DNA of 64,000 nt, taken from Phytophthora colocasiae (lineage: Eukaryota; Oomycota; Peronosporomycetes; Peronosporales; Peronosporaceae). The notes beneath the pieces are model-generated. The model saw nothing but the letters and a program-made list of their open reading frames with translations. It did no database searches and was not told where the DNA came from. Each line of letters opens with the position of its first letter. Within the stretch, counting starts at the first letter, position 1. Position numbers and translations under genes: made by a program. The stretch lies in contig JAGKQI010000105.1 in the NCBI GenBank assembly GCA_018806915.1, forward strand, positions 3,782,001-3,846,000, written 5' to 3'. Below are positions 1 through 49,422 of the stretch, one piece after another.

Positions 1-3000
1 TCCAGTTCCAGGTCTGAAATTGCGCGATCTAAGTCGAGCTTTTCTTTGTGTCTTGAGGCTGCCACTAGGTTGACAGCGCTCTGGTTTGACAAGGCATCAA
101 CATCGATACCGCCTGTATCCACCGATTCGACACGAGAGGCTCGAGAGCAATGTTGACCCAGGAAGCGAACACGCATCCACTTCCGAATGGCCTTGCGCAG
201 CTCCGTTTTCGAGATAGGTTTGACGATGAACTCGTCCATACCAGCATCTAGACACTTCTTTCGATCACCACTCATAGCGTACGCTGTAACACCGATAATG
301 GGGATACGCGGCAGCTTGTGTTGCTTCTCGAAAGCGCGAATATTTTGAGTCGACTCGTATCCGTTCATGATAGGCATTTCGCAGTCCATCAGCACGATGT
401 CGTACGAATCGTGATGCTCCTGGTACATTTGATAAGCGTCCAATCCGTTCGTCTCCCACTGCAACAAGTGGTTATCCTCCATGAAGAAGCTCTTGACGAC
501 TTCCCAGTTGAATTCATTGTCTTCCACCACCAAGATCCGAGCGTGCTTCGGTACCAGCTCAGACATTGACGCGTTATGTCTGGCGTTGCTGTTTGCTAGA
601 GAAGGAGCGGCGCCTGCCTCAGCAGCCATAATTGCCGGGACCTTAGGGATAAGCTCGTTCTCTTCGTCCTCAGGGCGACGCACCACAACTGTGAAGAAAA
701 ACTCGGAGCCCTCGCCCAGTTCACTGTCGACATCAATATCACCGTCCATCAACTCCACAAGTTGCTTACAAATTGCAAGACCCAAACCAGAGCCAGTGGG
801 GTTGTTCTTCCGTGTACGTTCAAGCTTCGTGAACAGTGAGAACAAACGGGATTTCTCCTCGTCATCCATGCCGACTCCTGTGTCGATCACTTGGAACAAA
901 AGCTTCACGCAATGCTTTGGAAGATCTGGCGACGGAACCATGTTGCATCGAACTGTGATCGATCCCTCGTTCGTGAACTTAATAGCGTTAGAAAGCAGGT
1001 TCAGCAGCACTTGACGTAGTCGACTCACATCACCAATTACGCGTTTGGGAACCTTTGGCGAGCATTCTAGCGTAAGCTTAATGTGCTTTTCACGTGCCTT
1101 GAACTTGAAGATCTCCACTGAGTACTCCAACAAGTCTTGCATATGGAAGGGATCCGCAGAAATCTCCATGTGCCCGGCTTCAATCTTTGACAAGTCGAGG
1201 ATGTCGTTGATAAGATTCAGCAGCAGCGATCCAGATATGTACGCAATGTGCACGTAGCGCTCAGGCGTCTTGTCCAACTTTTGGTCGCGCAGGAGTTCCA
1301 ACATGCCCAATACACCGTTCAAAGGAGTGCGAAGCTCGTGGCTGAACGACGCCAGGAAATTTACCTTGGCCGCCTCCATGTGTTTCTTCGCAGTGTAGTC
1401 TTGGCCCACACCAATCACACCGCGAATGTTGCCGTGCATGTCCTTCTTACTAGAGGCATTCACAAGCAGCAGTAAGGATCGGCCTGCAGCCGTCGTCATT
1501 GGAAGTTCCATTTCCCCCACATCAATGCCAATCAACGCCTGGTTCAACAATTTTCGCACCTCTGAACGATTCTCAGCATTGATGAACGCGTCTACCAACG
1601 ACAGTCCCAGAACGGTGGACTTGTGGAAACCAGTTATCTCCTCAATCTTCTGGTTCCACTCGTTGATGCACCCAAAGGTGTCTACACCAAAGATGGGTGC
1701 ATTAGCCGTATCGATCAAGCGAAAGTATTCGTGTTCCTGCGCGATGCGATCGGTAATATCTTGCCCGATGCCCACCACGCCGACAATGTTTCCGTGCATG
1801 TCATTACGAGGAGTGGCGTTCAGAAGAATCTCAATTCTAGTACCAGGGCGTGTAATCAGCGGGAATTCGAAGTTAGCAGTCTGGATACCATTGAGCGCCT
1901 TGCTGAACACGTCTGCCACGATAGGTCGGTACTCTGGCGAGATAAACGTTTCCACCAGATTCTCTCCGATCACTTCAGCTGTTGAGTACTTCGTGATCTG
2001 CGCTGCCTTTTTGTTCCAAATGTTCACACACAGATTAGCATCTACGCCAAAGATCGGGGCGTTGGCTGTGTCAATCAGTCGAGTGTACTCTTGCTCCTGG
2101 ACAATCCGATCAGTTAAGTCTTGTCCAATGCCGACAACGCCCACGATCTTACCGTGTTGGTCAAACCGTGCGGTCGCATTCATGCGGATGTTCACAGTGC
2201 GCCCATTCTTTTTCTTCAGCTCAACATCAAAATTGGAGGTTTCATCGCCCTCCAGAGCCTTCCACAAAATGGTTTCCACCGCGTCGCGGTATTCTTGAGG
2301 AATGGCCCAGTTCACCAAGTCCTTACCGACTGCCTCCTCCTTTGAGAAACGCGTCATCTCAGCAGTCTTGTGGTTCCAGATATTGATCTTTCCTTGCGCG
2401 TCCGCGCCAAAGATTGGAGCATTTGCCTTCTCAATCAATCGGGCGTACTCTTGCTCTTGCGCGATACGATCCGTGATGTCTTGTCCAATGCCAACCATGC
2501 CGATTACTGCCCCATGCTCGTTAAACCGAGGTGTTGCATTTAGCAGGATCTCCACACGACGACCAGCTTTTGTCACCAGAGGGAATTCAAAGTTCGCAGT
2601 CTCCGTCCCATCGAGAGCCTTTGATAGGACTGCACTGACAGCTTCACGGTAGTCCTTTGTGATGAACTTTTCCACCAAATTCTCACCGACCACTTCATCA
2701 TTAGAATACATCATGATTTCAGCAGCCTTCTTGTTCCAGATATTGACGCGGCCTTCGCTGTCAACCCCGAAAATGGGCGCATTGGCAGTATCAATCAGGC
2801 GGCTATACTCTTGCTCCTGAGCAATTCGCTCTGTGATATCCTGGCCAATACTTACAACACCGACAATCTCCCCGAGCTCGTTATATCGCGGGGTGGCATT
2901 TAGCAAAATCTCCACGCGACGGCCGGACTTCGTGATAAGTGGGAAGTTGAAGTTAGCAGTTTGTACACCGTTTAACGCCTGCGATAACACCAAGCCCACA

Positions 3001-9779: not shown

Positions 9780-10054
9780 GGCGCCGCGCCGGCCATGAGC
9801 GCGAGACCGAGTCCAGTCGAGTCGAGCCCAGCCCCACTCGTTGCGTAGTGTTTCACCAAGTCCAGTAGGAGGATCGTGTAGAGGGGTGAAGTCGGCCAGG
9901 GGCGGCCGTTAGCTGCTGTACCAATACCCCCTCGCAATTAACTCGTTTCATTTTAACTCCACCAAATAACCCATTTCAAGAATGATTGTGTGTGGTTTAT
10001 TCTGAAAAAAAAACACATCTGGGTGATTGGGTCATTGCCACTCAATTGCTAACG

Positions 10055-18229: not shown

Positions 18230-21200
18230 ATGGGGAAGCACAGGAAGCCGAGGCCTCCCCCAGCGCCACCGCTAGACAACAACGCAAGTGAGCCATCGGT
18301 GCAGAAGAAGCCGCCGCCGCACATCTTCGGCTCGCAAGTAGAGGCGCTAGCTCAGCTGCTCCTGGACGCCAATGCGCCGGCAGTAGGCGTGGACATCGGC
18401 GGCCAAGTGATCGTCTGGAACAAACGCTTGGCGGACATTACGGGCTTCCACGCCGAACGTGTGCTGGGGCGACCATTGTCCGACTTTGTGTACGGTGCTC
18501 AGCGCAAGAAGGAGGTGGCAGCCGTCGTAGATGCCTGCATTCAGGACAAGCGACCAGTGCTGGAGCTACGAGTGCCGCTACTCACGACCACGGGCCGCAA
18601 CGCCGAAGTGCTGACCAATATGACACCATTATTAGCCGAAGACGGCACGTGCGTGGGAGTGTACGGTGTGGGACAGGATGTGACGGAGTGGGCCATTCAA
18701 GAGAAGCAGTACGCTACTGTCATGATGCAGGCCAACGCGCCCATTATTGAGCTGGATAAAGAAGGCAACATCACCGTGTGGAACTCCAAGACGGCCTCTA
18801 TGACAGGATATACCAGTGTTGATATGGTGGGCGAGCCGTTGCTGCCTGTAGTGGACCAAAACTTCAGGAAAATAGTATCGGAAAAGATCGACCAGGCTCT
18901 TTCGGGTATTGCTGGAGCAGATTTCGAACTTCCACTAGTGACGGCAAGAGGATCAAGAGTCGAGATTGTGCTGTGTTTAACACCGAGATTTGACACGCTA
19001 GGATCCGTGATGGGGGTCGTCGCGATCGGACAGGATGTGACGGAGAGAAACACCAAGGAAATGGAATACAGGAAACTCATCGAGACGGCAAACGCCCCCA
19101 TTTTTGGCGTTGATACCGAAGGAAGAGTGGTGATTTTTAACGCCAAAGCGGCTCAGCTCAGTGAATATTCACCCGATGAGGTCATGGGCGTGGACCTCGT
19201 GGATACGCTGATATCGGAAGAGTTCAGGCCAGCAGTTGCAGCAGTATTTGAAAGCGCATTCGAGGGAACTGAGACGGCAAACTTTGAATTCCCATTGGTC
19301 ACTAAGACGGGTCGAAAAGTGGAGATCCTGCTGAACGCTACACCCCGGTATGATCACACAGGACAACTCGTGGGTGTTGTCGGGATTGGTCAGGATATAA
19401 CGGACCGTATTATCCAGGAGAAAGAGTACAGCCGGCTGATCGACACTGCCAACGCTCCCATTTTTGGCGTGGACTGCAACGGCGAAGTGATAATTTGGAA
19501 CAAGAAGGCAGCAGCTATTACTGATTACACAAATGAGGACACCATTGGACAAGAGTTGTTCAAGTTCATCTCGGAGGACTATCGAGATGCTGTTGCCAAG
19601 GTTTTGGCGAAAGCTCTAGAGGGAACTGGCACAGCAAACTTTGACTTTCCATTGATCACGAAGAGTGGGCGGCGGTTGGATATTCTGCTAAATGCAACAC
19701 CGAAATATGACCACTTCGGCAACATTTGCGGGGCAGTGGGTATCGGCCAGGACATCACAGATAGACGTGCTCAAGAGCAGGAGTACACACGGCTTATCGA
19801 TACTGCCAATGCTCCGATTTTCGGTGTGGATGAGAATGGATGCGTGAACATTTGGAACCGGAAAGCTGCCAATACTACCCAGTACTCGAATGAAGAAGTG
19901 CTTGGTGTGAATCTGGTCAAAAACTTTATTCCAGAGGATTTCCAGGAAGCAGTATGGACGGTCTTTTCTGAGGCGTTGAAAGGGCAAGAAACAGCAAACT
20001 TTGAATTTCCGTTGATCACAAAGGATGGCCGTCGAGTAGAGATTTTGCTAAACGCTACTCCACGCTACAACGAGAAGGGTGTTGTAATTGGTGTTGTTGG
20101 GATCGGGCAGGATATTACCGTGCGTATGGCCCAGGAAAAGGAAACTAACCGACTTATCACCTCAGCAAATGCTCCGATTTTCGGCGTGGATCAGGATGGC
20201 CGCGTGAATATTTGGAATCTGAAGGTGGCGGAAATCACGCAGTTCTCTTCCGAAGAGATAATGGGAAAGGATCTGGTTAATCGTTTTGTTGCAGAAGATC
20301 ATCGTGAGTCAGTTGGGCTGTTGTTACGGAAAGCTCTCCAAGGAGAGCAGACTGGCAATTTCGACTTCCCTCTCATCACTAAGACCGGGCGAAGGGTGGA
20401 AATCTTGCTGAATGCTACCCCTAGATACGATGAGCTGGGACAGGTTTTCGGTGTGATGGGAATTGGTCAGGACATTACAGAGCGCATTGCCCAGGAGCAA
20501 GAGTATATCCGCTTGATCGATACTGCTAACGCCCCTATCTTTGGCGTTGACAGCGAAGGCCGTGTAAATATCTGGAACAAAAAGGCTGCTGAGATCATGC
20601 AATACACGACGGATGCAGTGATGGGTGAGAAACTGGTGGAGAAGTACATCACGAAGGACTATCAGGAGGCTGTTCGATATGTGTTAGCAAAGGCGTTGAA
20701 AGGTTTTGAAACCGCAAACTTCGAATTTCCACTCATCACTAAGGCGGGTCGACGTGTTGAGATTCTATTGAATGCTACGCCTCGTTACAATGAGCACGGA
20801 GCAGTGATTGGTATGGTTGGCATTGGCCAAGACATCACGGATCGTATTGCTCAAGAGCAAGAGTACATGCGGCTGATTGACACAGCTAACGCCCCGATCT
20901 TTGGTGTGGACATTAATGGACGTGTAAATATTTGGAACCGTAAGGCGGCTGAGACGACTCAGTACACCAACGCGGAAGTCTTGGGCAAGGATCTCGTTGC
21001 GGAATTTATTTCGGAGGAGTACAAAGTACCGGTCAGAAGCGTGTTGGAGAAGGCTTTCAAGGATGTCGAGACCGCAAATTTCGAGTTTCCGTTGATTACG
21101 AAGGCTGGCCGACGCGTGGAGATCCTATTGAATGCTACACCTCGATACAATGAGCTGGGCCAGGTAATGGGAATGGTGGGTATCGGCCAGGATATTACTG

Positions 21201-27200: not shown

Positions 27201-30200
27201 CGAGTTTCCGTTGATCACGAAGGCTGGTCGCCGTGTGGAGATTTTGTTGAACGCGACCCCGAGATATAATGAACATGGTGAAGTGAAGGGTATGGTTGGA
27301 ATTGGACAGGATATCACGGAACGTATCGCTCAAGAGCAGGAGTACAGTCGTCTGATTGATACGGCCAATGCTCCAATTTTTGGTGTTGATGCAAATATGT
27401 GCGTCAATATTTGGAACAGGAAAGCTGCTCAGATCACGAACTATTCGATAGGGGAAGTTATGGGTGAGAATCTTGTGGAGACATTCATTTCGCCTGAATT
27501 CCGACCGATTGTGGCTGAAGTGCTTTCCCAAGCTTTGACAGGAGTGGAGACCGCGAATTTCGAATTCCCTCTAATTACTCGTCCAGGAACAAGAATAGAG
27601 ATTTTGCTAAACGCAACTCCGCGCTATGACTTGACAGGTAACATTGTTGGTGTCGTGGGTATTGGCCAGGATATCACAGACCGCATCGCCCAAGAACACG
27701 AATACTTCCGACTGATTGATACTGCGAACGCTCCGATCTTCGGTATTGATACAAATGGCCGCATCAATGAGTGGAACCAGAAGATCGAGGAGATAACTGG
27801 TTACCACAAGTCAAGTGTTCTGGGATTATCGTTGGTGCACACATTTATCACTCCTGAAAGTCGCCAGCAGGTTCGACAATTGCTGAACCAAGCTCTGATC
27901 GGCATCGATGTTGGCGAGATGGAGCTTCCGATGACAACCAAGCGTGGTGTGTTCCTGCTTCTGCTTGTGAATGCATCGAGCAAGAAGGACATGCACGGAA
28001 ATATTCGCGGAGTGATCGGTGTGGGACAAGACTACACTGCGAGAAAGCACATGGAGGCTGCCAAGGTGAACTTCCTGGCCTCATTTAGCCACGAGTTACG
28101 AACACCATTGAATGGTGTACTGGGTATGCTGGAATTGCTGAAGGAACAGCCACTTGATAAATCCATCGAGCGGTATGTCCACATGGCTTACGTGTCCGGA
28201 TCGCTACTTCTGAATTTGATCAACGACATTTTGGACTTGTCGAAGATCGAGGCTGGACACCTTGAAATCTCGACGGCCCCGTTCCAGATGCACGATTTGT
28301 TGGAGTACTCGATTGAAATCTTTAAGTTTAAAGCTCGGGAGCGTGGCCTGAAGCTTGAGCTCAAATGTGGCGACAACGTACCAAAAGCTGTCATTGGAGA
28401 TGTTGTGCGTCTACGTCAAGTGTTGTTGAACTTGCTTTCAAACGCAATCAAGTTTACGAACACGGGTTCAATTACGGTGGCATGCAGCGTGGTACACTCC
28501 CCTGAATTGCCGCCACAGTTTAAAAAGCTGTTGTTCCAAGTTATCGATACGGGTATTGGCATGGATGCAGAGGAGAAAATGCGTCTCTTTTCTCTGTTTA
28601 CAAAGTTGGAGCGCACTCGCCAGAACAACCCTACTGGTTCTGGTCTGGGTCTTGCTATTTGCAAGCAGCTTGCGGAACTTATGGATGGCTCAATTGATGT
28701 CGACAGTGAATTGGGTGTTGGCAGCAATTTCTTCTTCACGGTGGTCGTGAGATTGATTGACGAGGTTGATCCTAAGCATGCCTACTACTCCTCGGAGGAC
28801 TTCCTCGATCCATCGACAGCGCTACTTTCACCCGACGGAGCTGTACGTGCGGCCGAGAATGGAGAGAATGCGTCTGTGCGACTGGAGGTTCCGAAACAAG
28901 CGCGAATCTTGGTAGTTGAGGATAACGAATTCAACTGGGAAGTAGTGAAGTGCTTCCTGCAGCAAGATGATCACCTGCTTCAATGGGAGGTGAATGGCCG
29001 TGATGCTGTCAAGGCATACATGGAAAATCATACGGAGTTTGACCTAGTCTTCATGGATTGCGAAATGCCCATTATGGACGGATATACTGCTACGAGCACA
29101 ATTCGTGAGTTTGAGCAGCAGCAAAACCTTCCTCGCATTCCTATTCTAGGGTTGACGGCATATGCGATGAGTGGGGATCGACAGAAGTGTCTCGACTGTG
29201 GCATGGATGAATTCATGGTGAAACCTATCTCGAAGCTGAGTCTTCGAAAGGCCATCCGGCAGTGGATGCGTATCCGTTATCTTGGCCAGCACCAAGCTGT
29301 AGTCCCTGGTGGGCCGATCGAAGCGCCTGTGACCTTAAGAAATGCCCCACGACCTGCTGCCAAAAGTCCCATGCGGATCCCTGCACCTTCCCCAGGTGCT
29401 CCTACCCCAATGCCTTCGTTTGAAAGTGACCTTGAGGAGGTTTCGCTCGTGGACGCAGTCTCGACTGCGAGACTTGCACCTGCTTCACGCCACATGCAGC
29501 AATTGGATCTTGCTCAGGCTATATCGAATCTGGAGTTGGATGATCCGATGTCAATTGGTCTACAAAGCGGCCGAGCCGTTCGGACTGCCACTCCGACGAC
29601 TTCGATCTTCAGCTTGGGGCCCTCAGTCAACAACGTCTCACGAGCGACAAGCCAAAACGATTTGCCTGATCTGCTGAGGCTATCTCGAAACACGAGTGGT
29701 GCTTCAGCTTCGAGCCCACCGCCACCTGAAAAGCACAATTCCGAGACGTCAACAACGTTGCCTTATGTCAAGACTCCGTTTACTGGAGTTACAACCAGCC
29801 CAGCATTAAGCGGATCACGTTCCCCTGTGATGAATCCAACTCTGTGGAGCCACCCCCCATTCAACAAGAAGGACCTGCCGACAGGTCGACCGCAATCTTG
29901 GTCTAAACTCGTACCTAAGAAGAAGGTCAGCTTCCATGAAGAGCTGGACTACGGATCCTCCCACCCGAGCAGAGGCGGACACAGTAGCAGTGGCATGCCC
30001 TCTGTGTTAGAGCACATGGAAACTGGTAGTTCTGTAGAAGATGACACAGTGATGAAGCCTGCAGCAACCCAGGAAGTGTCGCACTCGATTGACCCGATGA
30101 GTATCGAAATCCCAGAGGGAGATCCCGTGAACTACACTATGGGGGTGGATCAGTGTGGAGGACATGAAGAGCTCTTCTTGACTCTTCTGGAGAAGTTCGC

Positions 30201-30582
30201 GACAACTTCGGAATCAATTACGACCAGGGTGATCGAGGCGCACGAGCGAAACGACTTCGTCACTGCCCGTCGCGAAGCGCACTCGCTTAAAGGATCGTCT
30301 GCCTACGTCGCTGCTCTCCGTTTGTCGAAATGCGCCTTCCGCGTCCAAGTCGCGTACGAACATCTGATAGCGCAACAGGCGAACGGTGAAGGCTCCGACA
30401 CGTTGGCCGCGAAGGAAATTGTGGATAAATCTGTCAAGTTGCTCACCAAGGAGCAGAAACTTTTCCGTGGCTACCTCCGACGCAACTTTGAGTTCAAGAG
30501 TCCTGCGGAATCATCCCAAGTGGCATCAGGTCAACAGCCTGACAACCAAGACAAAGCAACCGGTCCGTGCTGCATAATGTGA
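18230..30582 (+). CDS. HK2: 27-PAS hybrid histidine kinase, interrupted by a single-base frameshift
   Basis: Frame one runs from ATG 18230 to a stop at 26852-26854 (2874 aa, 24 PAS starts). A one-base deletion near 26848 moves the rest to another frame, which stays open to TGA at 30580-30582. Read together the product would be about 4117 aa with 27 PAS domains. HisKA has FSHELRTPLNG (His codon 28090-28092). HATPase has LLSNAIKFTN, DTGIGM and GSGLGLAICKQL. REC has MDCEMPI (Asp codon 29056-29058). A Ser/Pro-rich linker leads to Hpt with AHSLKGSSAYVA (His codon 30280-30282), and the C-terminus is GPCCIM, a CaaX box. No intron and no membrane segment are visible. If the frameshift is real, translation yields a kinase-less PAS protein and the downstream part is lost unless re-initiated. 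If it is an assembly error, this is one of the longest PAS arrays I know of. An AATAAA lies at 30606. Confidence 0.92.
21893..22710 (+). repeat. Third copy of a two-PAS block in HK2
   Basis: These 818 bp match 24773-25590 with one mismatch that I can see (C at 21961 versus T at 24841), and also match 26573-27389 apart from the frameshift deletion. They encode PAS units 11 and 12 (= 19 and 20 = 24 and 25). Confidence 0.88.
23990..25591 (+). repeat. Near-identical tandem block, copy A (1.6 kb)
   Basis: Compared line by line with 25790-27390, the two blocks are identical except for one deleted C near 26848 in copy B. They start 1800 bp (five PAS units) apart and diverge sharply at both ends, including the intervening NMCINIFNRK-type unit. 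Confidence 0.92.
25790..27390 (+). repeat. Near-identical tandem block, copy B, carrying the frameshift
   Basis: This is the second copy of 23990-25591. It contains the single-base deletion that breaks HK2. Such long identity is also where assemblers make errors, so both the copy number and the deletion need independent support. Confidence 0.92.
26846..26854 (+). other. Frameshift site in HK2
   Basis: The equivalent place in the sister copies (22166, 25046) reads GAATTCCCACTG; here it is GAATTCCACTG, one C short. The loss converts the FEFPLIT strand to FEFH followed by TGA. Confidence 0.9.
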
Positions 30583-32701: not shown

Positions 32702-32755
32702 CGGGTTATTCTGGACTGGAAGAATATAACCGTTGTCATTTCCCTAGTTCTCTGT

Positions 32756-37285: not shown

Positions 37286-37766
37286 TTAGTAGCTTCTGCG
37301 TCCTATCCTGATCGTCGCCAGCTGTGTTGCTGTGTCACACAGCCTGTGTGCAACCACTGCTTGAAGCTCTCGTTCGCTGCTGCTTGGGCTCGATGTTACA
37401 GTACACATGTACATGTAGAAGCAGCTACACATTGCGGTGGGCAGCCTCGTAGCCACGTTGCATTTGCGCAGTCCGACGTGGCGCGACGCCAACGTTTCCT
37501 CCAGCAGGAACCGCTTAACCATTTTCTCTGGAGTTAATCTCCATCTACCCACACAGCCACTTGCCGCATCAGAACCCCAAGGCAACGATCACCAGTGGTG
37601 ATTCACCACACTGATAGACGTCGAGTCAGAAGTCAGTTCAAGTGTCTCCGAATTTCCGAACAGTGCAAAAATTAACCAGAAATTCCGCCTGGCTTTTTGC
37701 AGTCGTCCTTTCCGATACAAAAGTCCGCTCAGTCCGACTCTTAGCTTGTTGAGCACATTTACGCCC

Positions 37767-40424: not shown

Positions 40425-40509
40425 CAGTGAACACGATTGAAAATACAAGCAAGTAGATTGACAAAGTACAACATCGTATCGTACACGTGAAATGCAACAA
40501 GTTCTAGCC

Positions 40510-43500
40510 TTACATGATTCCGCAGGGTCCATTGGCACGATCCTGCGAAGAGCTCTGGGCACGCAAAGCTGCGGCTGACGAAGCACTTCCGCTTCTGGTG
40601 AGATCGCGAAATTCAAAATTGCGGCGGAGGTATCCACGCAAGTGCCGGTGCTCTTTCTTAAGCAACGTGATCGAACCATCCAAAGACTGCTTTAAGGAGA
40701 TCATGACAGCCGCGTCAGCAAGTGCTGCCGGTTGGTCCGTACCAATTTCTGCCTGATACTGTTGCAACTGTTCACAGGCAACTTGAACTCGGAATGCAGC
40801 CTTCGACACACGCATCGCAGCAACATACGCAGATGATCCCTTTAGCGAATGAGATTCGCGCCGAGTGACCCCGATGTCACCTTGTTCGTACGCAGCCAAA
40901 ACTCGGGACATGATAGCTTCACAGCTCACAGTAAATTTCTCAAGCAAACTCAAAAACAGCTCTTCGGCACCGCCGCACTGCTGCACGCCACGCGAATAAT
41001 CCACAGGATCGCCCTCAGGGATAACGATGCTGGCAGGATCCATTGTTACACGCATCGCCGCATCACTCTCGGTGGTAGCACTTGCGTGGTCAACGCTAGG
41101 AGGACCTCGAGCACCATTTCCAGCGGCTGGACTACCGATGTTCAGACGCTCCAGCATGGCTGCAATCGGATCTCCTGCTGCGTGATCGTCTGAACTTCTA
41201 TCCGACTCGAACCGCTGCAAGGTCAGAGGTGCGTTATCATTGCGGCCTGCTTCAGTCGCTGCTCGCGCGCGCGTGCTCATAGCATCCGATACAGAACTTG
41301 GGGACAAAGGCTGTTGAGACGACGTCGATGGTGGAGCAGACTCCTTTTTGCTGCCCATGAAAGGTGGATGACTCCACAGTGTCGGATTACTGTGAGAGGA
41401 TACATGATCCGAAGTCTCAGCACCTTCCAGCGGCTTGTCCTTCATGTTGGGCAAAGTCGCAGACGTCTTGTTGATTTGCTTCCAGTCCGGAATGTCAACG
41501 ATAGCGCCACCAGTGTCACGTTGAAGGGTCATAAGGCCACTTGACCGCGTACTGTTCCCAATCGAAGAGCCTAGACTAAAAATTGATGTCGTCGGCACTG
41601 CTGTGCGCACCGTGGGCCCAACCTGGCGTCGGATTGCCATAGGATCATCTAACTCCAAATTGGAAATTGCACGCGCTAGATTGAGCTGTTGCATATGCCG
41701 CGAGGCAGGAGCGAGTCGAGATCCCGCTGATTCCGAGGCATTGTTGAATAGATCTGTTTCGTCAACTTGACTGTCGAAGGACGGGCGCGGGGTGGGTGAC
41801 GTTGTTGGGTATGATGTCGGCGCGATGTCTAGCTCTTCTCCACCACGGTCTTTCGACGAGGCAGGTGAAGAGATAGATACGGTTGGAGCAGAAGCAGCGA
41901 CGCTCATATTTTCTGAACTACCGCGAGGGTAATCACCCGATCCAGCAACTGAAGGTGTTGCAGTTTTCGGTCCGAGGTAGCGAACACGCATCCACTGACG
42001 AATAGCCTTGAGTAAACTATTCTTCGAAATAGGCTTCACCATGAACTCGTCCATCCCCGATCCCAAGCACTTTTGACGATCTCCACTCATAGCATAGGCT
42101 GTCAGACCAAGAACAGGGATGCGGGGCAGATCGTTTTCGTGTTCAAACTGACGGATTGCTTTTGTAGCTGTGTATCCATCCATGACAGGCATCTCACAGT
42201 CCATGAAGATCAAGTCGAACTTCGTATGGTTCTCAGTGTATGCCTTCAGTGCATCGCGGCCATTCACCTCCCACTGCAGGAGATGATCTGCCTCTTGGAG
42301 GAAGCACTTTACCACCTCCCAATTGAACTCGTTATCTTCAGCAACCAATATCCTAGCTTGTCTGGGAATCACAATCTTTGCGTTGTTTGCAGCATTCGCG
42401 ACAGCTACGCTTGTTGAACTATCATTCGAATTCACATTCGACGTGTCCATGTTGACAGGAGCAACTCCACCATCTGTAAGCAACTCATTTGCAGCGTAGA
42501 ACAATCCCTTAGCGTCCATATCGTCGAGCAAACGAACCACAACCGTGAAGTAAAAGTTGCTACCAACGTCCAGCTCACTATCAACACCGATTTGTCCGTC
42601 CATAAGTTCCGCAAGTTGCTTGCAAATAGCAAGACCCAGACCAGAACCAGTAGGGTTGTTCTGGCGAGTTCGCTCCAGCTTCGTAAACAGAGAAAATAAG
42701 CGCATCTTCTCCTCAGCATCCATGCCAATACCCGTATCGATAACTTGGAACAACAGCTTTTTGAATGCCTTCGGTAATTCAGGAGTGTATACAACGCTGC
42801 ATGTAACTGTGATCGAGCCTTCGTTCGTGAATTTGATTGCGTTGGACAACAAGTTCAACAACACTTGACGTAGACGCACAACATCACCAATAGCAACCTT
42901 TGGCACATTATCATCGCACTTCAACTCAAGTTTAAGTCCACGTTCCCGGGCCTTAAATTTGAAGATCTCGATCGAGTAATCCAGCAGCTCGTGCATCTGG
43001 AATGGGGCAGCTGAAATCTCGAGATGTCCAGCCTCGATCTTTGATAAGTCCAAAATATCGTTGATCAAATTCAATAGAAGGGATCCCGATACATACGCCA
43101 TATGCACATATCTCTCTGGTGCTTTATCCAGTGTCTGCTCCTTCAACAATTCCAACATTCCCAGCACACCATTCAAAGGCGTTCGCAACTCGTGACTAAA
43201 CGAGGCCAGGAAATTCACCTTAGCAGCCTCCATGTGCTTCCTCGCTGTGTAGTCTTGTCCCACACCGATCACTCCACGAATGTTTCCGTGCATGTCCTTC
43301 TTGCTCGATGCATTCACAAGCAAAAGCAGGAACACACCACGCTTGGTTGTCATCGGAAGCTCCATCTCGCCAACATCGATGCCGATCAGAGCTTGGTTCA
43401 GCAATTGCCGAACCTGCTGGCGACTTTCAGGGATAATAAATGTGTGAACCAACGACAAGCCTAGGACGCTCGACTTGTGGTAGCCAGTGATCTCTTCAAT

Positions 43501-46500
43501 CTTCTGGTTCCACTCATTGATGCATCCATTTGTATCGACGCCAAAAATTGGAGCATTTGCAGTATCAATCAGTCGGAAGTACTCGTGTTCTTGGGCAATG
43601 CGATCCGTGATGTCCTGTCCGATACCAACAACACCAACAATACTACCATTTGAATCGTAGCGTGGTGTCGCGTTCAACAGGATTTCGATTCGGGTTCCAG
43701 GCCTGGTGATGAGTGGGAACTCGAAATTTGCAGTTTCTTCACCCCTCAGAGCCTGCGAGAGAACCTCAGCAACAATTGGCCGGAACTCCGGCGAAATGAA
43801 AGTCTCCACAAGGTTCTCGCCCATGACTTCATCAATAGCATAATTCGTAATCTGAGCTGCCTTCCGATTCCAAATGTTGACACACATGTTGGCATCCACA
43901 CCGAAGATAGGAGCATTAGCTGTATCAATCAGACGACTATACTCCTGCTCCTGGGCAATGCGTTCGGTGATGTCCTGTCCGATTCCAACCATGCCCTTCA
44001 CTTCGCCATGCTCGTTGTATCGAGGCGTCGCATTCAACAAAATCTCCACACGGCGACCAGCCTTCGTAATCAACGGGAACTCAAAGTTGGCTGTTTCGTC
44101 ACCTTCGAAAGCTTTCTCTAACACAGTCCGCACTGGGACCTTGTACTCATTCGAAATGAACTCCGCCACGAGATCCTTGCCTAACACGTCTTCATTCATG
44201 TACTGCATGATATCGGCGGCCTTCCGATTCCAGATGTTCACACGACCGTTTGAGTCCACACCAAAGATGGGAGCGTTCGCGGTATCTATAAGTCTGCTAT
44301 ACTCCTGCTCTTGTGCGATACGATCAGTAATATCCTGACCGATACCAACCATACCAATCACCTCTCCATGCTCATTAAATCGTGAAGTTGCATTTAGCAA
44401 AATTTCCACACGTCTTCCAGCCTTGGTCATCAATGGAAATTCAAAGTTCGCTGTCTCAACACCTTCTAACGCCTTGGAGAGCACGAGACCAACTGCCTCA
44501 CGATAGTCTTCTGTGATGAACTTCTCAACGAGATTTTCACCCATCACGTCGTTCGGTGTGTACTGAGTAATCTCTGCAGCCTTCTTATTCCAGATATTAA
44601 CAAGACCACCACCATCAACACCAAAAATCGGAGCGTTTGCAGAATCAATCAGCCGAGCATACTCTTGCTCTTGAGCAATGCGGTCAGTGATGTCCTGTCC
44701 AATGCCAACGACACCAACAATGTGCCCATGCTGATCAAAGCGTGCTGTCGCATTAAGCAAGATGTTAACTCTTCGGCCGGTTTTGGTGATTACCGGCACT
44801 TCAAAGCTCGCTGTATCGTTTCCTTGCAGAGCATTCGACATGATTTCGTACACGATGGCTTGATATTCTGGATCGATGAACGTTTCCACATATTTCTCCC
44901 CAAGTACCTCCTCAACCGAATAATTCGTGATTTGAGCTGCTTTGTTGTTCAGAATGTTCACGCACATATTAGCGTCAACACCAAAAATCGGAGCATTAGC
45001 CGTGTCAATAAGTCGGCTGTACTCTTGCTCTTGCGCAATGCGGTCAGTGATATCCTGCCCAATGCCAACCATTCCCATCACTTCGCCTTGCTCGTTGTAA
45101 CGAGGCGTCGCATTAAGCAAGATTTCTACTCGCCGACCCGCTTTCGTGATTAGAGGAAACTCGAAGTTGGCTGTCTCCACACCTTCAAAAGCTTTTTCTA
45201 GCACGCATCGAACAGCTACACGATACTCTTCAGAAATAAACTTGGCTACGAGGTCCTCGCCTAGCACATCTTCAGTCGTGTACTGCATGATATCAGCAGC
45301 CTTCCTATTCCAGATGTTAACGAGTCCATTTGAGTCAACACCGAAAATGGGGGCGTTAGCCGTGTCAATGAGTCGCATGTATTCCTTCTCTTGTGCAATT
45401 CGATCGGTGATGTCCTGGCCAATACCAACCATTCCAATAACCTCGCCGTGTTCATTATTCCTTGGAGTTGCATTCAACAAAATCTCCACTCGCCGACCAG
45501 ACTTCGTCATCAATGGGAACTCGAAATTCGCAGTTTCAACGCCTTCCAAAGCCTTCGACAGCACAAGTCCAACTGCTTCGCGGTAGTCCTCCGTAATGAA
45601 CTTTTCCACTAAATTTTCGCCCATTACATCAGTCGGTGTGTACTGCGTAATTTCAGCCGCCTTCTTGTTCCAAATGTTAACCAGGCCATCAGCATCGACA
45701 CCAAAAATCGGGGCGTTGGCCGAGTCAATGAGCCTCGCATATTCCTCTTCCTGAGCGATACGATCAGTGATATCCTGGCCGATACCCACGACTCCAACAA
45801 TATGTCCGTGCTGATCAAAACGAGCCGTAGCGTTCAGCAGAATGTTCAATTTCCGTCCGTTCTTTGTAATCACTGGCACCTCGAAACTTGCTGTTTCATC
45901 ACCGTGCAATGCCTTCGACATGATATCGTAGACGATAGCCTGATACTCGGGTGCGATAAATGTCTCCACGTACTTTTCCCCAACAACTTCCTCAACAGCG
46001 TAATTCGTGATTTGAGCCGCCTTATTGTTCAGGATATTCACACACATGTTCGCATCGATACCGAAGATAGGGGCGTTAGCCGTATCTATAAGACGACTGT
46101 ACTCCTGCTCCTGCGCGATTCGGTCCGTAATATCCTGACCGATACCCACCATTCCCATCACTTCACCTTGCTCATTGTACCGCGGGGTGGCATTCAGCAA
46201 TATCTCAACCCGTCGACCTGCCCTGGTAATCAACGGAAACTCAAAGTTGGCGGTCTCCACACCTTCAAACGCTTTCTCCAGCACGCTGCGAACAGGCACC
46301 TTGTATTCTTCAGAGATGAACTCAGCGACCAAATCCTTGCCAAGCACATCTTCCGTGGTGTACTGCATAATGTCAGCAGCCTTGCGGTTCCAGATATTAA
46401 CGAGGCCGTTGGAATCAACGCCAAATATGGGAGCATTTGCTGTGTCGATGAGACGCATGTACTCTTTTTCCTGTGCAATACGATCCGTTATGTCTTGACC

Positions 46501-49422
46501 AATCCCAACCATGCCCATAACCTCCCCTTGCTCGTTGTAACGCGGGGTAGCGTTCAGTAGGATCTCGACTCGCCGACCAGACTTTGTAATCAACGGGAAC
46601 TCAAAATTTGCTGTTTCGACACCTTCAAAAGCCTTCTCTAATACGCTTCGAACTGGACTTTTATACTCCTCCGAGATGAATTCTGCCACGAGATCTTTGC
46701 CCAACACGTCCTCGTTCGTATACTGCGTAATATTTGCGGCTTTTCGGTTCCAAATATTGACTTTTCCATCAGAATCCACGCCAAAAATCGGGGCGTTGGC
46801 TGTATCGATCAGTCTCATGTATTCTTGTTCTTGAGCAATGCGATCCGTGATATCTTGTCCAATGCCAACCATTCCGATAACAGATCCATGTTCATTGTAC
46901 CGAGGTGTGGCATTCAGCAGAATTTCGACGCGTCGGCCGGTTTTCGTGATTAATGGAAACTCGAAATTCGCCGTTTCAACTCCATTCAGAGCTTCGGATA
47001 GCACATAGCTCACAGCTTCCTGGTAGTCCTTCGTGATAAACTTCTCTACAAGGTGCTCGCCCATGACTGCATCAGTTGGATACTGCATAATCTCAGCAGC
47101 CTTTTTGTTCCAAATGTTAACACGTCCTTCAGAGTCCACACCAAAGATCGGTGCATTCGCTGTGTCAATCAGGCGAATCAGTTCTTGTTCCTGGGCAATT
47201 CGCTCCGTAATATCCTGGCCAATTCCCACAACGCCAAATATTTGTCCGAGTTCATCGTAACGTGGGGTCGCATTAAGCAGGATCTCGACTCGCCTTCCAG
47301 TCTTGGTAATAAGGGGAAAGTCAAAGTTGTTCGTTTGCTCTCCCTCGAGAGCCCTTTGCAACTCCAGTTCAACTGTAGCTCGATGTTCTTCGGCTACAAA
47401 CCGGTTAACCAGGTCCTTACCCATGACCTCCTCGGCAGAATACTGGGTGATCTCCGCTGCCTTAAGATTCCAAATGTTCACTAATCCATCCCGATCAACA
47501 CCAAAAATCGGAGCGTTTGCTGCGTGAATGAGCCGGTTGGTTTCCTGTTCTTGGGCCATTCGAATAGTAATGTCCTGTCCGATACCTACAACACCAATAA
47601 CAGCACCTTTCTCGTTATAGCGTGAAGTGGCGTTCAAAAGGATCTCTACGCGACGGCCATCCTTTGTGATCAACGGAAACTCAAAGTTTGCTGTTTCTTG
47701 TCCTTCCAGTGCTTGCGATAGCACCGCCCACACAGCCTCCCTGAAATCCTCCGGAATAAAGTTCTCAACTAAATTCGCTCCAAGCACCTCTTCGTTGGAA
47801 TACTGGGTAGTATCAGCAGCTTTCCGGTTCCAAATGTTTACACACCCATTCTCATCCACACCGAAAATCGGAGCATTGGCAGTATCGATAAGACGTGTGT
47901 ACTCCTGCTCTTGAGCACGTCTGTCTGTGATGTCCTGACCGATGCCTACTACCCCGCAAATGTTGCCGAAGTGGTCGTATTTCGGTGTTGCATTTAGCAG
48001 AATATCCAACCGCCGCCCACTCTTCGTGATCAATGGAAAGTCAAAGTTTGCTGTGCCAGTTCCCTCTAAAGCTTTCGCCAAAACCTTGGCAACAGCATCT
48101 CGATAGTCCTCTGAGATAAACTTAAACAGCTCCTGGCCAATGGTGTCTTCATTTGTGTAATCAGTAATAGCTGCTGCCTTCTTGTTCCAGATAATCACTT
48201 CGCAATTGCAGTCCACACCAAAAATGGGAGCATTGGCAGTATCGATCAGCCGGCTGTACTCCTTTTCTTGAATAATTCGATCCGTTATATCCTGACCGAT
48301 TCCAACAACACCCACAAGTTTTCCTGTGTGATCATACCGGGGTGTAGCGTTCAGCAGGATCTCCACTTTTCGACCCGTCTTAGTGACCAATGGGAATTCA
48401 AAGTTTGCCGTCTCAGTTCCCTCGAATGCGCTTTCAAATACTGCTGCAACTGCTGGCCTGAACTCTTCCGATATCAGCGTATCCACGAGATCCACGCCCA
48501 TGACCTCATCGGGTGAATATTCACTGAGCTGAGCCGCTTTGGCGTTAAAAATTACCACTCTTCCTTCGGTATCAACGCCAAAAATGGGGGCGTTTGCCGT
48601 CTCGATGAGTTTTCTGTATTCCATTTCCTTTGTGTTTCTTTCCGTCACATCTTGTCCGATAGCAACAACTCCCAGCACGGACCCCAGGGAATCAAACCTC
48701 GGTGTCAAGCAAAGCACAATTTCAACTCTGGACCCTCTAGCTGTCACCAGCGGCAGTTCAAAATCTGCTCCAGGGATACCCGTCAACGCTTGATCGATTT
48801 TATCCGAGACGATCTTTCTGAAACTCTCATCCACAACTGGCAATAATTGCTCGCCCACCATATCAACACTTGCATAGCCTGTCATAGAGGCCGTCTTGGT
48901 ATTCCAGACTCTGATGTTACCTTCTTTATCCAGTTCAATAATGGGTGCGTTAGCCTGCATCATCACAGTAGCGTACTGCTTCTCCTGAATGGCCCACTCC
49001 GTCACATCCTGGCCCACACCGTACACGCCCACACAGGAGCCGTCCTCGGCCAGCAGCGGTGTCATGTTTGTCAGTACTTGTGCGTTGCGTCCCTTGGTGT
49101 TCCTCAGCGGGATGCGCAACTCCAACTCCGGTCGTTTGTCCTGAATACAGGCCACGATGGTCTCCATGACCTCCAATTTGCGCTGTTTGCCATAAACGAA
49201 GTCAGCTAAGGGACGGCCGACCACGCGGCCCGCCTCAAAGCCTGTAATCTCCTCCATACGCGGGTTCCAGAGCGCCACGCAGCCGTCTGTCCGGACGCCC
49301 AGAGCTGGTGCATTCGCGTCACTCAACATGCGGAAAAGCTCCTGCACGCGCGGCCACGCAGCTCCATTTACGTCCTGCGTCGGCGGCGCAGCGCTGGAGG
49401 CTCGGCGCTTCCCTTTCGCCAT
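40510..49422 (-). CDS. HK3: intact 17-PAS hybrid histidine kinase (2970 aa)
   Basis: An uninterrupted intronless frame from ATG 49422 to TAA 40512-40510. A short basic leader (MAKGKRRASSAAPPTQ) is followed by 17 PAS units between about 49330 and 43270, each about 120 residues. HisKA has FSHELRTPLNG (His2077, codon 43194-43192). HATPase has LLNLLSNAIKFTN, DTGIGM and GSGLGLAICKQL. REC has MDCEMPV (Asp2408, codon 42201-42199) and FMVKPIS. A Ser/Pro-rich linker of about 330 residues leads to Hpt with SHSLKGSSAYVAA (His2858, codon 40851-40849). The C-terminus GPCGIM is a CaaX box. All four phosphorelay modules are therefore in one chain. The first five PAS units, and the segment from the last PAS through the kinase core, are very similar to HK2. 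PAS units lack the NCRFLQ motif of LOV photosensors. Confidence 0.97.
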   Translation of the reverse strand: MAKGKRRASSAAPPTQDVNGAAWPRVQELFRMLSDANAPALGVRTDGCVALWNPRMEEITGFEAGRVVGRPLADFVYGKQRKLEVMETIVACIQDKRPELELRIPLRNTKGRNAQVLTNMTPLLAEDGSCVGVYGVGQDVTEWAIQEKQYATVMMQANAPIIELDKEGNIRVWNTKTASMTGYASVDMVGEQLLPVVDESFRKIVSDKIDQALTGIPGADFELPLVTARGSRVEIVLCLTPRFDSLGSVLGVVAIGQDVTERNTKEMEYRKLIETANAPIFGVDTEGRVVIFNAKAAQLSEYSPDEVMGVDLVDTLISEEFRPAVAAVFESAFEGTETANFEFPLVTKTGRKVEILLNATPRYDHTGKLVGVVGIGQDITDRIIQEKEYSRLIDTANAPIFGVDCNCEVIIWNKKAAAITDYTNEDTIGQELFKFISEDYRDAVAKVLAKALEGTGTANFDFPLITKSGRRLDILLNATPKYDHFGNICGVVGIGQDITDRRAQEQEYTRLIDTANAPIFGVDENGCVNIWNRKAADTTQYSNEEVLGANLVENFIPEDFREAVWAVLSQALEGQETANFEFPLITKDGRRVEILLNATSRYNEKGAVIGVVGIGQDITIRMAQEQETNRLIHAANAPIFGVDRDGLVNIWNLKAAEITQYSAEEVMGKDLVNRFVAEEHRATVELELQRALEGEQTNNFDFPLITKTGRRVEILLNATPRYDELGQIFGVVGIGQDITERIAQEQELIRLIDTANAPIFGVDSEGRVNIWNKKAAEIMQYPTDAVMGEHLVEKFITKDYQEAVSYVLSEALNGVETANFEFPLITKTGRRVEILLNATPRYNEHGSVIGMVGIGQDITDRIAQEQEYMRLIDTANAPIFGVDSDGKVNIWNRKAANITQYTNEDVLGKDLVAEFISEEYKSPVRSVLEKAFEGVETANFEFPLITKSGRRVEILLNATPRYNEQGEVMGMVGIGQDITDRIAQEKEYMRLIDTANAPIFGVDSNGLVNIWNRKAADIMQYTTEDVLGKDLVAEFISEEYKVPVRSVLEKAFEGVETANFEFPLITRAGRRVEILLNATPRYNEQGEVMGMVGIGQDITDRIAQEQEYSRLIDTANAPIFGIDANMCVNILNNKAAQITNYAVEEVVGEKYVETFIAPEYQAIVYDIMSKALHGDETASFEVPVITKNGRKLNILLNATARFDQHGHIVGVVGIGQDITDRIAQEEEYARLIDSANAPIFGVDADGLVNIWNKKAAEITQYTPTDVMGENLVEKFITEDYREAVGLVLSKALEGVETANFEFPLMTKSGRRVEILLNATPRNNEHGEVIGMVGIGQDITDRIAQEKEYMRLIDTANAPIFGVDSNGLVNIWNRKAADIMQYTTEDVLGEDLVAKFISEEYRVAVRCVLEKAFEGVETANFEFPLITKAGRRVEILLNATPRYNEQGEVMGMVGIGQDITDRIAQEQEYSRLIDTANAPIFGVDANMCVNILNNKAAQITNYSVEEVLGEKYVETFIDPEYQAIVYEIMSNALQGNDTASFEVPVITKTGRRVNILLNATARFDQHGHIVGVVGIGQDITDRIAQEQEYARLIDSANAPIFGVDGGGLVNIWNKKAAEITQYTPNDVMGENLVEKFITEDYREAVGLVLSKALEGVETANFEFPLMTKAGRRVEILLNATSRFNEHGEVIGMVGIGQDITDRIAQEQEYSRLIDTANAPIFGVDSNGRVNIWNRKAADIMQYMNEDVLGKDLVAEFISNEYKVPVRTVLEKAFEGDETANFEFPLITKAGRRVEILLNATPRYNEHGEVKGMVGIGQDITERIAQEQEYSRLIDTANAPIFGVDANMCVNIWNRKAAQITNYAIDEVMGENLVETFISPEFRPIVAEVLSQALRGEETANFEFPLITRPGTRIEILLNATPRYDSNGSIVGVVGIGQDITDRIAQEHEYFRLIDTANAPIFGVDTNGCINEWNQKIEEITGYHKSSVLGLSLVHTFIIPESRQQVRQLLNQALIGIDVGEMELPMTTKRGVFLLLLVNASSKKDMHGNIRGVIGVGQDYTARKHMEAAKVNFLASFSHELRTPLNGVLGMLELLKEQTLDKAPERYVHMAYVSGSLLLNLINDILDLSKIEAGHLEISAAPFQMHELLDYSIEIFKFKARERGLKLELKCDDNVPKVAIGDVVRLRQVLLNLLSNAIKFTNEGSITVTCSVVYTPELPKAFKKLLFQVIDTGIGMDAEEKMRLFSLFTKLERTRQNNPTGSGLGLAICKQLAELMDGQIGVDSELDVGSNFYFTVVVRLLDDMDAKGLFYAANELLTDGGVAPVNMDTSNVNSNDSSTSVAVANAANNAKIVIPRQARILVAEDNEFNWEVVKCFLQEADHLLQWEVNGRDALKAYTENHTKFDLIFMDCEMPVMDGYTATKAIRQFEHENDLPRIPVLGLTAYAMSGDRQKCLGSGMDEFMVKPISKNSLLKAIRQWMRVRYLGPKTATPSVAGSGDYPRGSSENMSVAASAPTVSISSPASSKDRGGEELDIAPTSYPTTSPTPRPSFDSQVDETDLFNNASESAGSRLAPASRHMQQLNLARAISNLELDDPMAIRRQVGPTVRTAVPTTSIFSLGSSIGNSTRSSGLMTLQRDTGGAIVDIPDWKQINKTSATLPNMKDKPLEGAETSDHVSSHSNPTLWSHPPFMGSKKESAPPSTSSQQPLSPSSVSDAMSTRARAATEAGRNDNAPLTLQRFESDRSSDDHAAGDPIAAMLERLNIGSPAAGNGARGPPSVDHASATTESDAAMRVTMDPASIVIPEGDPVDYSRGVQQCGGAEELFLSLLEKFTVSCEAIMSRVLAAYEQGDIGVTRRESHSLKGSSAYVAAMRVSKAAFRVQVACEQLQQYQAEIGTDQPAALADAAVMISLKQSLDGSITLLKKEHRHLRGYLRRNFEFRDLTRSGSASSAAALRAQSSSQDRANGPCGIM
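43270..49335 (-). repeat. Coding tandem PAS array of HK3 (17 units)
   Basis: Units repeat every 360 bp. Units 9-11 and 12-14 form a three-unit higher-order repeat (types SNGLVNIWNRKAADIMQYT, NMCVNILNNKAAQITNY, and NIWNKKAAEITQYTP), followed by a partial third round (15, 16). The nucleotide copies are clearly diverged, so this duplication is older than that in HK2. Confidence 0.92.

What the first reader, a model, noticed from the sequence alone, without database searches (positions are those of the whole stretch)
1..49422. Local family of giant PAS-ladder hybrid histidine kinases (10, 27 and 17 PAS domains)
Three paralogues within 50 kb share a PAS array of exact 120-residue period, HisKA, HATPase and REC (plus Hpt and CaaX in HK2 and HK3) but differ almost only in PAS number. 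Most histidine kinases have one to a few PAS domains. Each unit ends in a DIT motif and a helix leading directly into the next unit, so the array could form a long dimeric stalk in which signals from many PAS pockets are summed, or in which length itself matters. The modules are seen directly; the stalk model is inference.
Basis: partly seen in the sequence, partly recalled or inferred. Interest (0 to 1): 0.92.

Follow-up and report, generated by a model that had tools for sequence, protein, structure and literature searches.

The report
Oomycete giant PAS-array histidine kinases
Three neighbouring Phytophthora genes encode giant sensor kinases with 10, about 22-27 and 17 similar sensing modules; the family was already known, but the helices joining the modules keep lengths that fit a rigid rod, and the genome search offers one obvious downstream partner, a NIMA-type protein kinase.

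Summary
HK1, HK2 and HK3 carry 10, 27 and 17 PAS units, then HisKA, HATPase, REC, Hpt and a C-terminal CaaX box (HK1's Hpt and CaaX lie just outside the window). The unit period is 120 only after about unit 4. HK2 has a frame break inside a 1.6-kb exact duplicate, so its true count may be 22. The family is known: a 2010 paper reports three clustered P. infestans HKs with 10, 15 and 21 PAS domains.

Additions. (1) All 50 measured inter-PAS linkers in the window are 15 residues; arrays in other eukaryotes have 15 or 22 in 489 of 492 pairs, one heptad apart; AlphaFold2 draws one continuous helix between units. This supports a phase-locked rod. (2) The genome search finds 3 HisKA, 3 Hpt and 5 REC; the only other intact receiver is fused to a NEK-type kinase conserved in oomycetes, the likely output. 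(3) HK1 and several HK3 arrays are collinear unit by unit across species; HK2's middle turns over. Relay to NEK and dimeric rod are inferred.

The parts
1..5213 (-). HK1, 10-PAS hybrid histidine kinase (2037 aa); its last ~900 bases, with Hpt and CaaX (CVVM), lie left of the window (L015:1103-7213:-)
1368..4976 (-). HK1 array of 10 PAS units
1173..1367 (-). HK1 HisKA (SHELRTP motif)
687..1034 (-). HK1 HATPase_c
183..536 (-). HK1 receiver (REC)
18230..26854 (+). HK2, first open frame: N-terminus, PAS units 1-23 and the first part of unit 24
26875..30582 (+). HK2, second open frame: rest of unit 24, units 25-27, HisKA, HATPase, REC, Hpt, CaaX (CCIM)
23990..25591 (+). HK2 1.6-kb block, first copy, repeated exactly five units further on
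25790..27390 (+). HK2 1.6-kb block, second copy; its one difference from the first is the frame break
28063..28257 (+). HK2 HisKA
28396..28743 (+). HK2 HATPase_c
28906..29259 (+). HK2 receiver (REC)
30184..30375 (+). HK2 Hpt
40510..49422 (-). HK3, 17-PAS hybrid histidine kinase (2970 aa), CaaX end CGIM
43252..49341 (-). HK3 array of 17 PAS units
43027..43221 (-). HK3 HisKA
42541..42888 (-). HK3 HATPase_c
41998..42351 (-). HK3 receiver (REC)
40762..40947 (-). HK3 Hpt

Best explanation
These are three paralogous, soluble, probably prenylated multi-PAS hybrid histidine kinases of a Phytophthora species (closest named hits P. oleae and P. capsici). Shown by sequence: PAS family matches, domain order HisKA-HATPase-REC-Hpt, phospho-acceptor His and Asp residues in place, no transmembrane stretch in a simple scan, C-terminal CaaX. 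Inferred mechanism: the PAS units stack head to tail, joined by one helix of fixed phase (15 residues here; 22, one heptad longer, in many relatives), forming a long rod, most likely a parallel dimer. Twists or register shifts caused by events in individual PAS units pass down it to the DHp helices. The phosphate then goes His to the protein's own REC, to its own Hpt, and on to the one other intact receiver found in the genome, the N-terminal REC of a NEK-type Ser/Thr kinase (REC-kinase-DEP-DUF547). The cell would thus feed one His-Asp relay into one Ser/Thr kinase at a membrane. My sub-estimates: architecture 0.97, phase-locked helical rod 0.7, parallel dimer 0.65, REC-NEK as main output 0.6, prenylation 0.8.
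For: Pfam calls; catalytic motifs in all three proteins. Linkers: 50 of 50 in the window are 15 aa; in 92 rows put with the oomycetes 905 of 918 pairs are 15; in 45 other eukaryotic or unnamed rows 118 at 15 and 371 at 22 of 492; in bacterial loci 8 of 9 cleanly aligned pairs are 22, and 5 of 5 where the second unit is also of the ANAP type. The 22-residue linkers are hydrophobic at 2, 5, (9), 12, 16 and 19, an a/d heptad, and also at 13 and 20. PhyB PAS1-PAS2 aligns with 1+6=7 extra residues in the linker, plus 3 before the next strand. Indel control: next to 155 distinct oomycete linkers 55 PAS cores differ from 105 aa while 11 linkers differ from 15; next to 354 other linkers 24 cores differ while 3 linkers are neither 15 nor 22. 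AF2 three-unit model, pLDDT 86, continuous inter-PAS helices; the best PDB fold matches are tandem-PAS proteins such as DosP, PpsR, LOV-HK and FixL, at TM 0.27-0.42 of the query, so the overall stacking differs. Closed relay: 3 HisKA, 3 Hpt, 5 REC, 54 of 55 PAS hits here. REC-NEK: found across oomycete genera; phospho-Asp in 46 of 48 rows, the other 2 gapped. CxxM end in 67 of 75 oomycete-type HK rows, 0 of 45 other rows. Purifying selection: dN/dS 0.014-0.13 in the 10 of 20 unit pairs with measurable dS (74).
Against: No contact, phosphotransfer or ligand evidence exists for any step. The dimer was not modelled, and the one attempt on the PAS-DHp-CA-REC part failed (pLDDT 39). The 15-residue linkers themselves have a weak a/d seam: position 5 is polar in 25 of 25 distinct window linkers and position 2 in 23 of 25. 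The 15/22 split may go back to few events; the tree minimum of 12 changes rests on about 105 columns and FastTree. Out-of-phase linkers occur, mostly at the first linker (8 of the 14 distinct exceptions), and some pairs with another PAS type gave 17, 17 and 18. The genome search reads exons separately, so an intron-split receiver could be missed. Eleven HATPase hits besides the three HKs were not examined. HK2 is frame-broken here.
Confidence: 0.62

Rival explanations
1. The PAS arrays are mostly passive: repeats expanded by unequal crossing-over act as spacer or ruler, and only the last one or two PAS units regulate the kinase.
For: HK2's middle units are partly interchangeable and recently copied. 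In HK1 orthologues unit 9 is among the most conserved and unit 1 the least. Saprolegniales rows manage with 5-7 detected units. No LOV motif in 53 units and a His in the F-alpha region (set by position) in only 2 of 53, so no known cofactor signature was found.
Against: HK1 units are conserved position by position across species (in the 14 Phytophthora, Nothophytophthora and downy-mildew rows P0001-P0020 tested, units 5, 6, 7 and 9 are 91-100% identical to their counterpart against 66-73% to the next best unit; unit 8 is 77-96% against 57-62%), which a mere spacer does not need. dN/dS is low in the measurable pairs.
Confidence: 0.25
2. The 15/22 linker lengths reflect one or two ancestral indels spread by tandem duplication and recombination between units, not a physical requirement for helix phase.
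For: All units in an array are copies of few ancestors; the tree on about 105 columns is weak and units recombine. Pairs with another PAS type gave 17, 17 and 18.
Against: Bacterial linkers from different phyla with dissimilar sequences are also 22 in 8 of 9 clean pairs; the phytochrome linker differs by 7 in the helix; PAS core indels are tolerated far more often than linker indels; 4 arrays mix 15 and 22 without intermediates.
Confidence: 0.25
3. REC-NEK is not the partner: the relay ends inside the HK protein, or acts through another protein.
For: No interaction data. A second REC-like protein exists (C104) although its phospho-Asp is replaced. The Plasmopara halstedii gene model of the NEK lacks the REC (P0141).
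Against: REC-NEK is the only other intact receiver found, and HK and REC-NEK rows both occur in Phytophthora, Peronospora, Bremia, Hyaloperonospora, Plasmopara, Nothophytophthora, Globisporangium, Pythium, Lagenidium, Albugo, Aphanomyces, Saprolegnia and Thraustotheca (names).
Confidence: 0.35
4. HK2 as assembled is an artefact (false five-unit expansion plus consensus error) or a decaying gene.
For: 1.6-kb exact repeat whose only difference is the frame break; HK2-like relatives have 18-21 detected units.
Against: The rest of HK2 is open and conserved through Hpt and CaaX. In HK1 and HK3 no internal pair listed exceeds 79.2% DNA identity, too low for false duplication.
Confidence: 0.5

Closest known systems
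Oomycete multi-PAS histidine kinases (Judelson and Ah-Fong 2010, PMC3019232)
   Same: Three clustered HKs in P. infestans with 10, 15 and 21 PAS domains, kinase plus response regulator, no transmembrane domain (passages read); HK1's 10 units match one of them in number
   Different: A term search of its main text finds no CaaX, prenyl, Hpt, heptad, receiver or DUF547, and no passage on a receiver-NEK fusion; HK2 here has up to 27 units and HK3 17
P. sojae HK Ps130388 (PLoS Pathog 2023, PMC10072465)
   Same: Multiple PAS, kinase, receiver and HPt; deletion lines affected zoospore chemotaxis, cyst germination and infection (passages read)
   Different: 6486-bp ORF; which of the three paralogues it corresponds to was not determined; no downstream partner named in the passages
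Plant phytochrome A/B PAS1-PAS2 region
   Same: Closest solved structures by sequence profile (E 6e-41 for PhyB, 2e-31 for PhyA); PhyB linker longer by one heptad plus 3 residues
   Different: No GAF/PHY chromophore module here; only two PAS units aligned there
PAS arrays of other protists and algae (named: Guillardia, Prorocentrum, Cymbomonas, Pseudoscourfieldia, Aureococcus, Cyclotella, Ditylum)
   Same: Same PAS subfamily in arrays, e.g. 20 detected units in a Prorocentrum row and 21 in an unnamed transcriptome row, several with kinase domains
   Different: Many with 22-residue linkers; no CxxM end in the C-termini printed (several are partial models)
YF1-type sensor-kinase coiled-coil linkers (review PMC6798134)
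   Same: Heptad dependence of signalling on linker length; the review extends the idea to linkers between consecutive sensor modules and names regularly spaced PAS domains (passages read)
   Different: Experiments there concern one sensor on one kinase, not 10-27 unit arrays

Membership tests
Oomycete multi-PAS hybrid histidine kinase | N-terminal tandem PAS array of 10 or more units | tested here: met
Oomycete multi-PAS hybrid histidine kinase | HisKA, HATPase and REC with phospho-acceptor His and Asp | tested here: met
Oomycete multi-PAS hybrid histidine kinase | no transmembrane segment | tested here: met
   no 19-residue window reaches mean hydropathy 1.6 in any of the three; simple scan only
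Oomycete multi-PAS hybrid histidine kinase | genes clustered; few per genome | tested here: met
   3 HisKA hits in 92.5 Mb, all in this cluster
Multistep phosphorelay kinase | Hpt domain with phospho-acceptor His | tested here: met
   Pfam Hpt above cut-off in all three; HS(M/L)KGSS motif
Multistep phosphorelay kinase | phosphotransfer to a separate receiver | not testable with these tools
   candidate receiver found; transfer needs biochemistry
CaaX-prenylated protein | C-terminal CaaX, conserved | tested here: met
   CVVM, CCIM, CGIM; CxxM in 67 of 75 oomycete-type rows; modification itself not tested
Phytochrome | bilin-binding GAF and PHY domains | tested here: not met
   no GAF/PHY in Pfam scans at E 0.001
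LOV photoreceptor / helmchrome-like kinase | LOV motif with flavin-binding Cys (recalled: NCRFLQ) | tested here: not met
   0 of 53 complete units contain NCRF; Hyphochytrium paper states that helmchrome is absent in oomycetes (passage read)
Parallel coiled-coil PAS rod | continuous inter-PAS helix with heptad-quantised length | tested here: met
   exceptions listed; the a/d seam is clear in 22-residue and weak in 15-residue linkers
Parallel coiled-coil PAS rod | dimer with helices packed in parallel | not tested
   monomer only was modelled

The most novel reading that the evidence does not exclude
Inter-PAS helices of a whole subfamily, from bacteria through algae to oomycetes, come in phase-preserving lengths (15 or 22 residues), so arrays of 10-27 PAS units are one continuous, register-locked transmission rod in which many unit-specific signals combine; in oomycetes this rod drives a closed, membrane-tethered His-Asp-His-Asp relay ending in a receiver-controlled NIMA-type kinase, which would be the organism's one two-component output.
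Probability: 0.42. Interest if true: 0.75.

Novelty: new member of a known kind. Interest (0 to 1): 0.52.

Why it matters
How stacked sensor domains combine signals is an open question. These arrays, with fixed linker phase, unit-by-unit conservation in two paralogues and a recently recombined third, are a natural test bed. The 2023 P. sojae paper says that in-depth knowledge of oomycete two-component systems, especially downstream signalling, is lacking (passage read). A genome-wide count that leaves one intact receiver, fused to a NEK-type kinase, gives a single hypothesis to test; NEK kinases are linked to flagella in other organisms (PMC3019232 passages), and the P. sojae deletion affects zoospores.

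Tried and rejected
Misassembly as an explanation for the whole array: rejected for HK1 and HK3 (no internal unit pair listed exceeds 79.2% DNA identity; collinear arrays in other species), kept open for HK2's five-unit block. Oomycete-only arrays: rejected, since arrays of the same PAS subfamily occur in several algal and protist groups. RNA or tRNA features in the window: none at the thresholds used. Known cofactor signatures: none found (LOV motif recalled, F-alpha region set by position only). Structure of last PAS-DHp-CA-REC from 3 rows: failed, not used. Tree count of 15/22 switches: a minimum of 12 on a weak tree, given only as a hint. Literature: REC-NEK in oomycetes, CaaX histidine kinases, PAS stacks and heptad linkers; among the listings I saw no paper describing REC-NEK in oomycetes or prenylated oomycete HKs, but the library holds open-licence papers only, some lists were capped, and I judged most entries by title and start of abstract.

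Rows dropped before counts: linkers were counted only where both cores align to within 4 positions of the model ends (within 6, within 8) and under 60 aa; one search counts distinct linker sequences and needs core length 100-125, one search counts all pairs without that filter; P0121-P0240 (NEK search) were left out of the iterated PAS scans. In one search the clean pairs outside the oomycetes are: 8 at 22 and 1 at 17 (L035) in bacterial loci, 2 at 22 in P0098, 17 in P0090 and 18 in P0089 (unnamed sources); in three of the eight 22s (L020, L034 twice) the second unit is not of the ANAP type. Pairs that failed the filter there had lengths 20, 20, 24, 27 and 33. The tree kept only units followed by a 15 or 22 linker, so it cannot show other lengths.
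Full report
What is there. The window is C22:3782001-3846000 of a 92.5-Mb assembly in 105 contigs. The closest named proteins are from Phytophthora oleae (HK1 kinase region, 98%) and P. capsici (the REC-NEK protein 98%; HK3 units 97-100%), so it is a Phytophthora near these. Three large genes were translated and scanned with Pfam. HK1 (5213 to about 900 bases left of the window, minus strand, 2037 aa) has 10 PAS units, HK2 (18230-30582, plus strand) 27 and HK3 (49422-40510, minus strand, 2970 aa) 17. All three continue into HisKA, HATPase_c, REC and Hpt and end in a CaaX box (CVVM, CCIM, CGIM). The phospho-acceptor His of HisKA and Hpt and the Asp of REC are in place, and no 19-residue window looks transmembrane.

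HK1 also has Hpt and CaaX; they lie outside the window. The period is 120 only beyond about unit 4: HK1 runs 121,123,120,119,120..., HK2 and HK3 121,119,120,119,120.... These departures come from PAS cores of 104-108 residues; the linker between GQDxT and the next ANAP is 15 in 50 of 50 measurable cases. HK2 is split by a frame break in unit 24. The break lies in a block (25790-27390) that copies 23990-25591 without any other difference (exact runs of 1060 and 543 bp). A very recent duplication with a real break and an assembly artefact both fit. Intact copies of the same unit sequence exist in the same gene.

Is it known? Yes, as a family. The 2010 P. infestans kinome paper reports three clustered HKs with 10, 15 and 21 PAS domains, up to 20 in P. 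ramorum and up to 11 in H. arabidopsidis, no transmembrane domain, and calls the arrays exceptional (PMC3019232, passages read). [quoted passage not shown] A P. sojae HK of this kind was deleted, with effects on zoospore chemotaxis, cyst germination and infection (PMC10072465, passages read). Outside the oomycetes, rows have up to 21 detected units (an unnamed transcriptome; 20 in a Prorocentrum row).

Array size across species. With a unit HMM, 19 of the 26 best rows (P0001-P0026, HK1-like) have 10 units; the other 7 have 4, 5, 5, 5, 8, 9 and 9, several of them partial models. Of rows P0045-P0062, 7 of 18 have exactly 17: Bremia, P. cactorum, P. megakarya, P. rubi, Peronospora farinosa, P. 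ramorum and Peronosclerospora. The other 11 have 5-16, among them a P. capsici record with 14 that lacks counterparts of units 10-12 and a Peronospora matthiolae record with 11, so 17 is common, not universal. HK2-like rows have 18-21. Counts also depend on the record: P. ramorum gives 15 in one (P0056) and 17 in another (P0058). In 15 of the 17 HK1 orthologues tested every unit matches its own counterpart best; P0023 (unnamed) and P0024 (Pythium brassicae) do not, and P0022 (Globisporangium) has near-ties. The seven 17-unit HK3 rows are collinear except that unit 13 matches unit 10 best in four of them. So in HK1, and largely in HK3, the units have lasting individual identities. HK2's middle is the part that turns over: unit 12 equals units 20 and 25 at 100% DNA identity, and unit 11 matches unit 19 at 99.7%. 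Selection is purifying where measurable (dN/dS 0.014-0.13 in 10 of 20 pairs; dS was not computable in the other 10).

Linker phase. Relatives of the arrays in algae and other protists have unit spacings of mostly 127 or 120, and three rows (P0251, P0252, P0291) mix the two freely, a fourth (P0268) once. Reading the sequences shows that the 7 extra residues sit in the helix between GQDxT and ANAP, not in the PAS core. Over all pairs measured, 92 rows put with the oomycetes give 15 in 905 of 918 cases, and 45 other rows give 15 in 118 and 22 in 371 of 492 cases. Counting each distinct linker sequence once gives 144 of 155, and 59 plus 292 of 354. Of the 14 distinct exceptions, 8 are at the first linker, and 3 contain pieces of a repeat, as broken gene models would. 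PAS cores tolerate indels much more often than linkers do (55 against 11 of 155 in oomycetes; 24 against 3 of 354 elsewhere). In bacterial loci 8 of 9 cleanly aligned pairs are 22, including 5 of 5 in which the second unit is of the ANAP type; the ninth is 17, and two rows of unnamed source gave 17 and 18. In the 22-residue linkers hydrophobic residues fall at 2, 5, (9), 12, 16 and 19, an a/d heptad pattern, and also at 13 and 20; in the 15-residue linkers the seam is weaker. The profile's best solved matches are plant phytochrome PAS1-PAS2, where the alignment places 1+6 extra residues in the linker and 3 before the next strand. A review states that sensor-kinase linkers have discrete lengths and that similar signatures recur between consecutive sensor modules (PMC6798134, passages read), so the principle is known; I did not see it applied to these arrays in the searches named under Tried and rejected. 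Caution: the units are related by duplication; the parsimony minimum of 12 changes between 15 and 22 is from a weak tree.

Structure. AlphaFold2 on HK1 units 5-7 with 45 window-derived rows gives mean pLDDT 86 and pTM 0.52: three PAS folds joined by single helices (119-134, 239-254) that start right after the last strand of one unit and end shortly before the first strand of the next. The best PDB folds are tandem-PAS proteins such as DosP, PpsR, LOV-HK and FixL, at TM 0.27-0.42 of the query, so single PAS folds match better than the stacking. Only a monomer was modelled. A second job (last PAS to REC, 3 rows) failed at pLDDT 39.

Wiring. The whole-genome six-frame searches find 3 HisKA, all here; 3 Hpt, all here; 55 PAS hits, 54 here; and 5 REC, three in the HKs. 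The fourth REC begins an 899-aa protein with a NEK-type Ser/Thr kinase, a DEP match below Pfam's cut-off and DUF547. A search with that REC finds only the three HK receivers besides itself. The fifth (C104) is degenerate: Glu at the phospho-acceptor place, in a protein with IQ, SAM and ankyrin motifs. REC-NEK homologues occur in Phytophthora, downy mildews, Pythium-like genera, Albugo and Saprolegniales; of the first 48 rows 46 have the phospho-Asp and the kinase Lys and 2 are gapped there. The conserved Thr/Ser position of REC was not scored cleanly. Three more distant rows of unclear origin (P0169, P0171, P0172) also carry REC and kinase. The simplest relay is therefore HK to own REC to own Hpt to REC-NEK; this is inference. 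C-terminal CxxM is kept in 67 of 75 oomycete-type HK rows and in 0 of 45 other rows of the same search, so membrane tethering by prenylation is likely but untested.

Verdict. The idea that array length itself is the signal is not shown. The new, testable points are the 15/22 linker rule, the unit-by-unit conservation of HK1 and of many HK3 arrays, the CaaX ends and the single REC-NEK output candidate.

Noticed in passing
window 19067-19784 (HK2 units 3-4) and 47902-48618 (HK3 units 3-4): Units 3 and 4 are 96% and 94% identical in DNA between HK2 and HK3, while units 1, 2, 5 and 6 are 69-84%: a likely gene-conversion patch between oppositely oriented paralogues.
   Followed up: partly
window 23990-27390: 1.6-kb exact tandem block in HK2 whose only difference between copies is a frame break; typical of recent duplication or assembly error.
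   Followed up: partly
L013:3882-6578: REC-NEK kinase-DEP-DUF547 protein conserved across oomycetes, with a few more distant relatives of unclear origin.
   Followed up: yes
L014:1122-6605: Protein with a degenerate receiver (Glu in place of the phospho-Asp), IQ motifs, SAM and ankyrin repeats.
   Followed up: no
G000:C22:2299738-2300058: The only PAS hit outside the cluster; possibly the PAS-bearing MAP kinase described for P. infestans, not checked.
   Followed up: no
PAS units of HK1-HK3: Closest solved structures by sequence profile are the PAS1-PAS2 domains of plant phytochromes A and B, suggesting a shared PAS subfamily.
   Followed up: partly
P0065, P0068, P0072 (Saprolegniales HKs): The first inter-PAS linker is 19 residues, four longer than 15; no later linker of these rows is among the exceptions.
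   Followed up: no
P0048 (P. capsici record): HK3 orthologue with 14 units, missing counterparts of units 10-12: a real three-unit difference or an assembly collapse.
   Followed up: no
window 37746-40421 +: Open frame with RGS and DENN domains between HK2 and HK3.
   Followed up: no
window 32848-34593 -: HECT ubiquitin-ligase open frame between HK2 and HK3.
   Followed up: no
window 9986-11506 +; 52063-55020 -; 61159-61989 -: Other open frames: GTPase (MMR_HSR1), PH domain protein with a weak EF-hand match, PX-domain protein.
   Followed up: no
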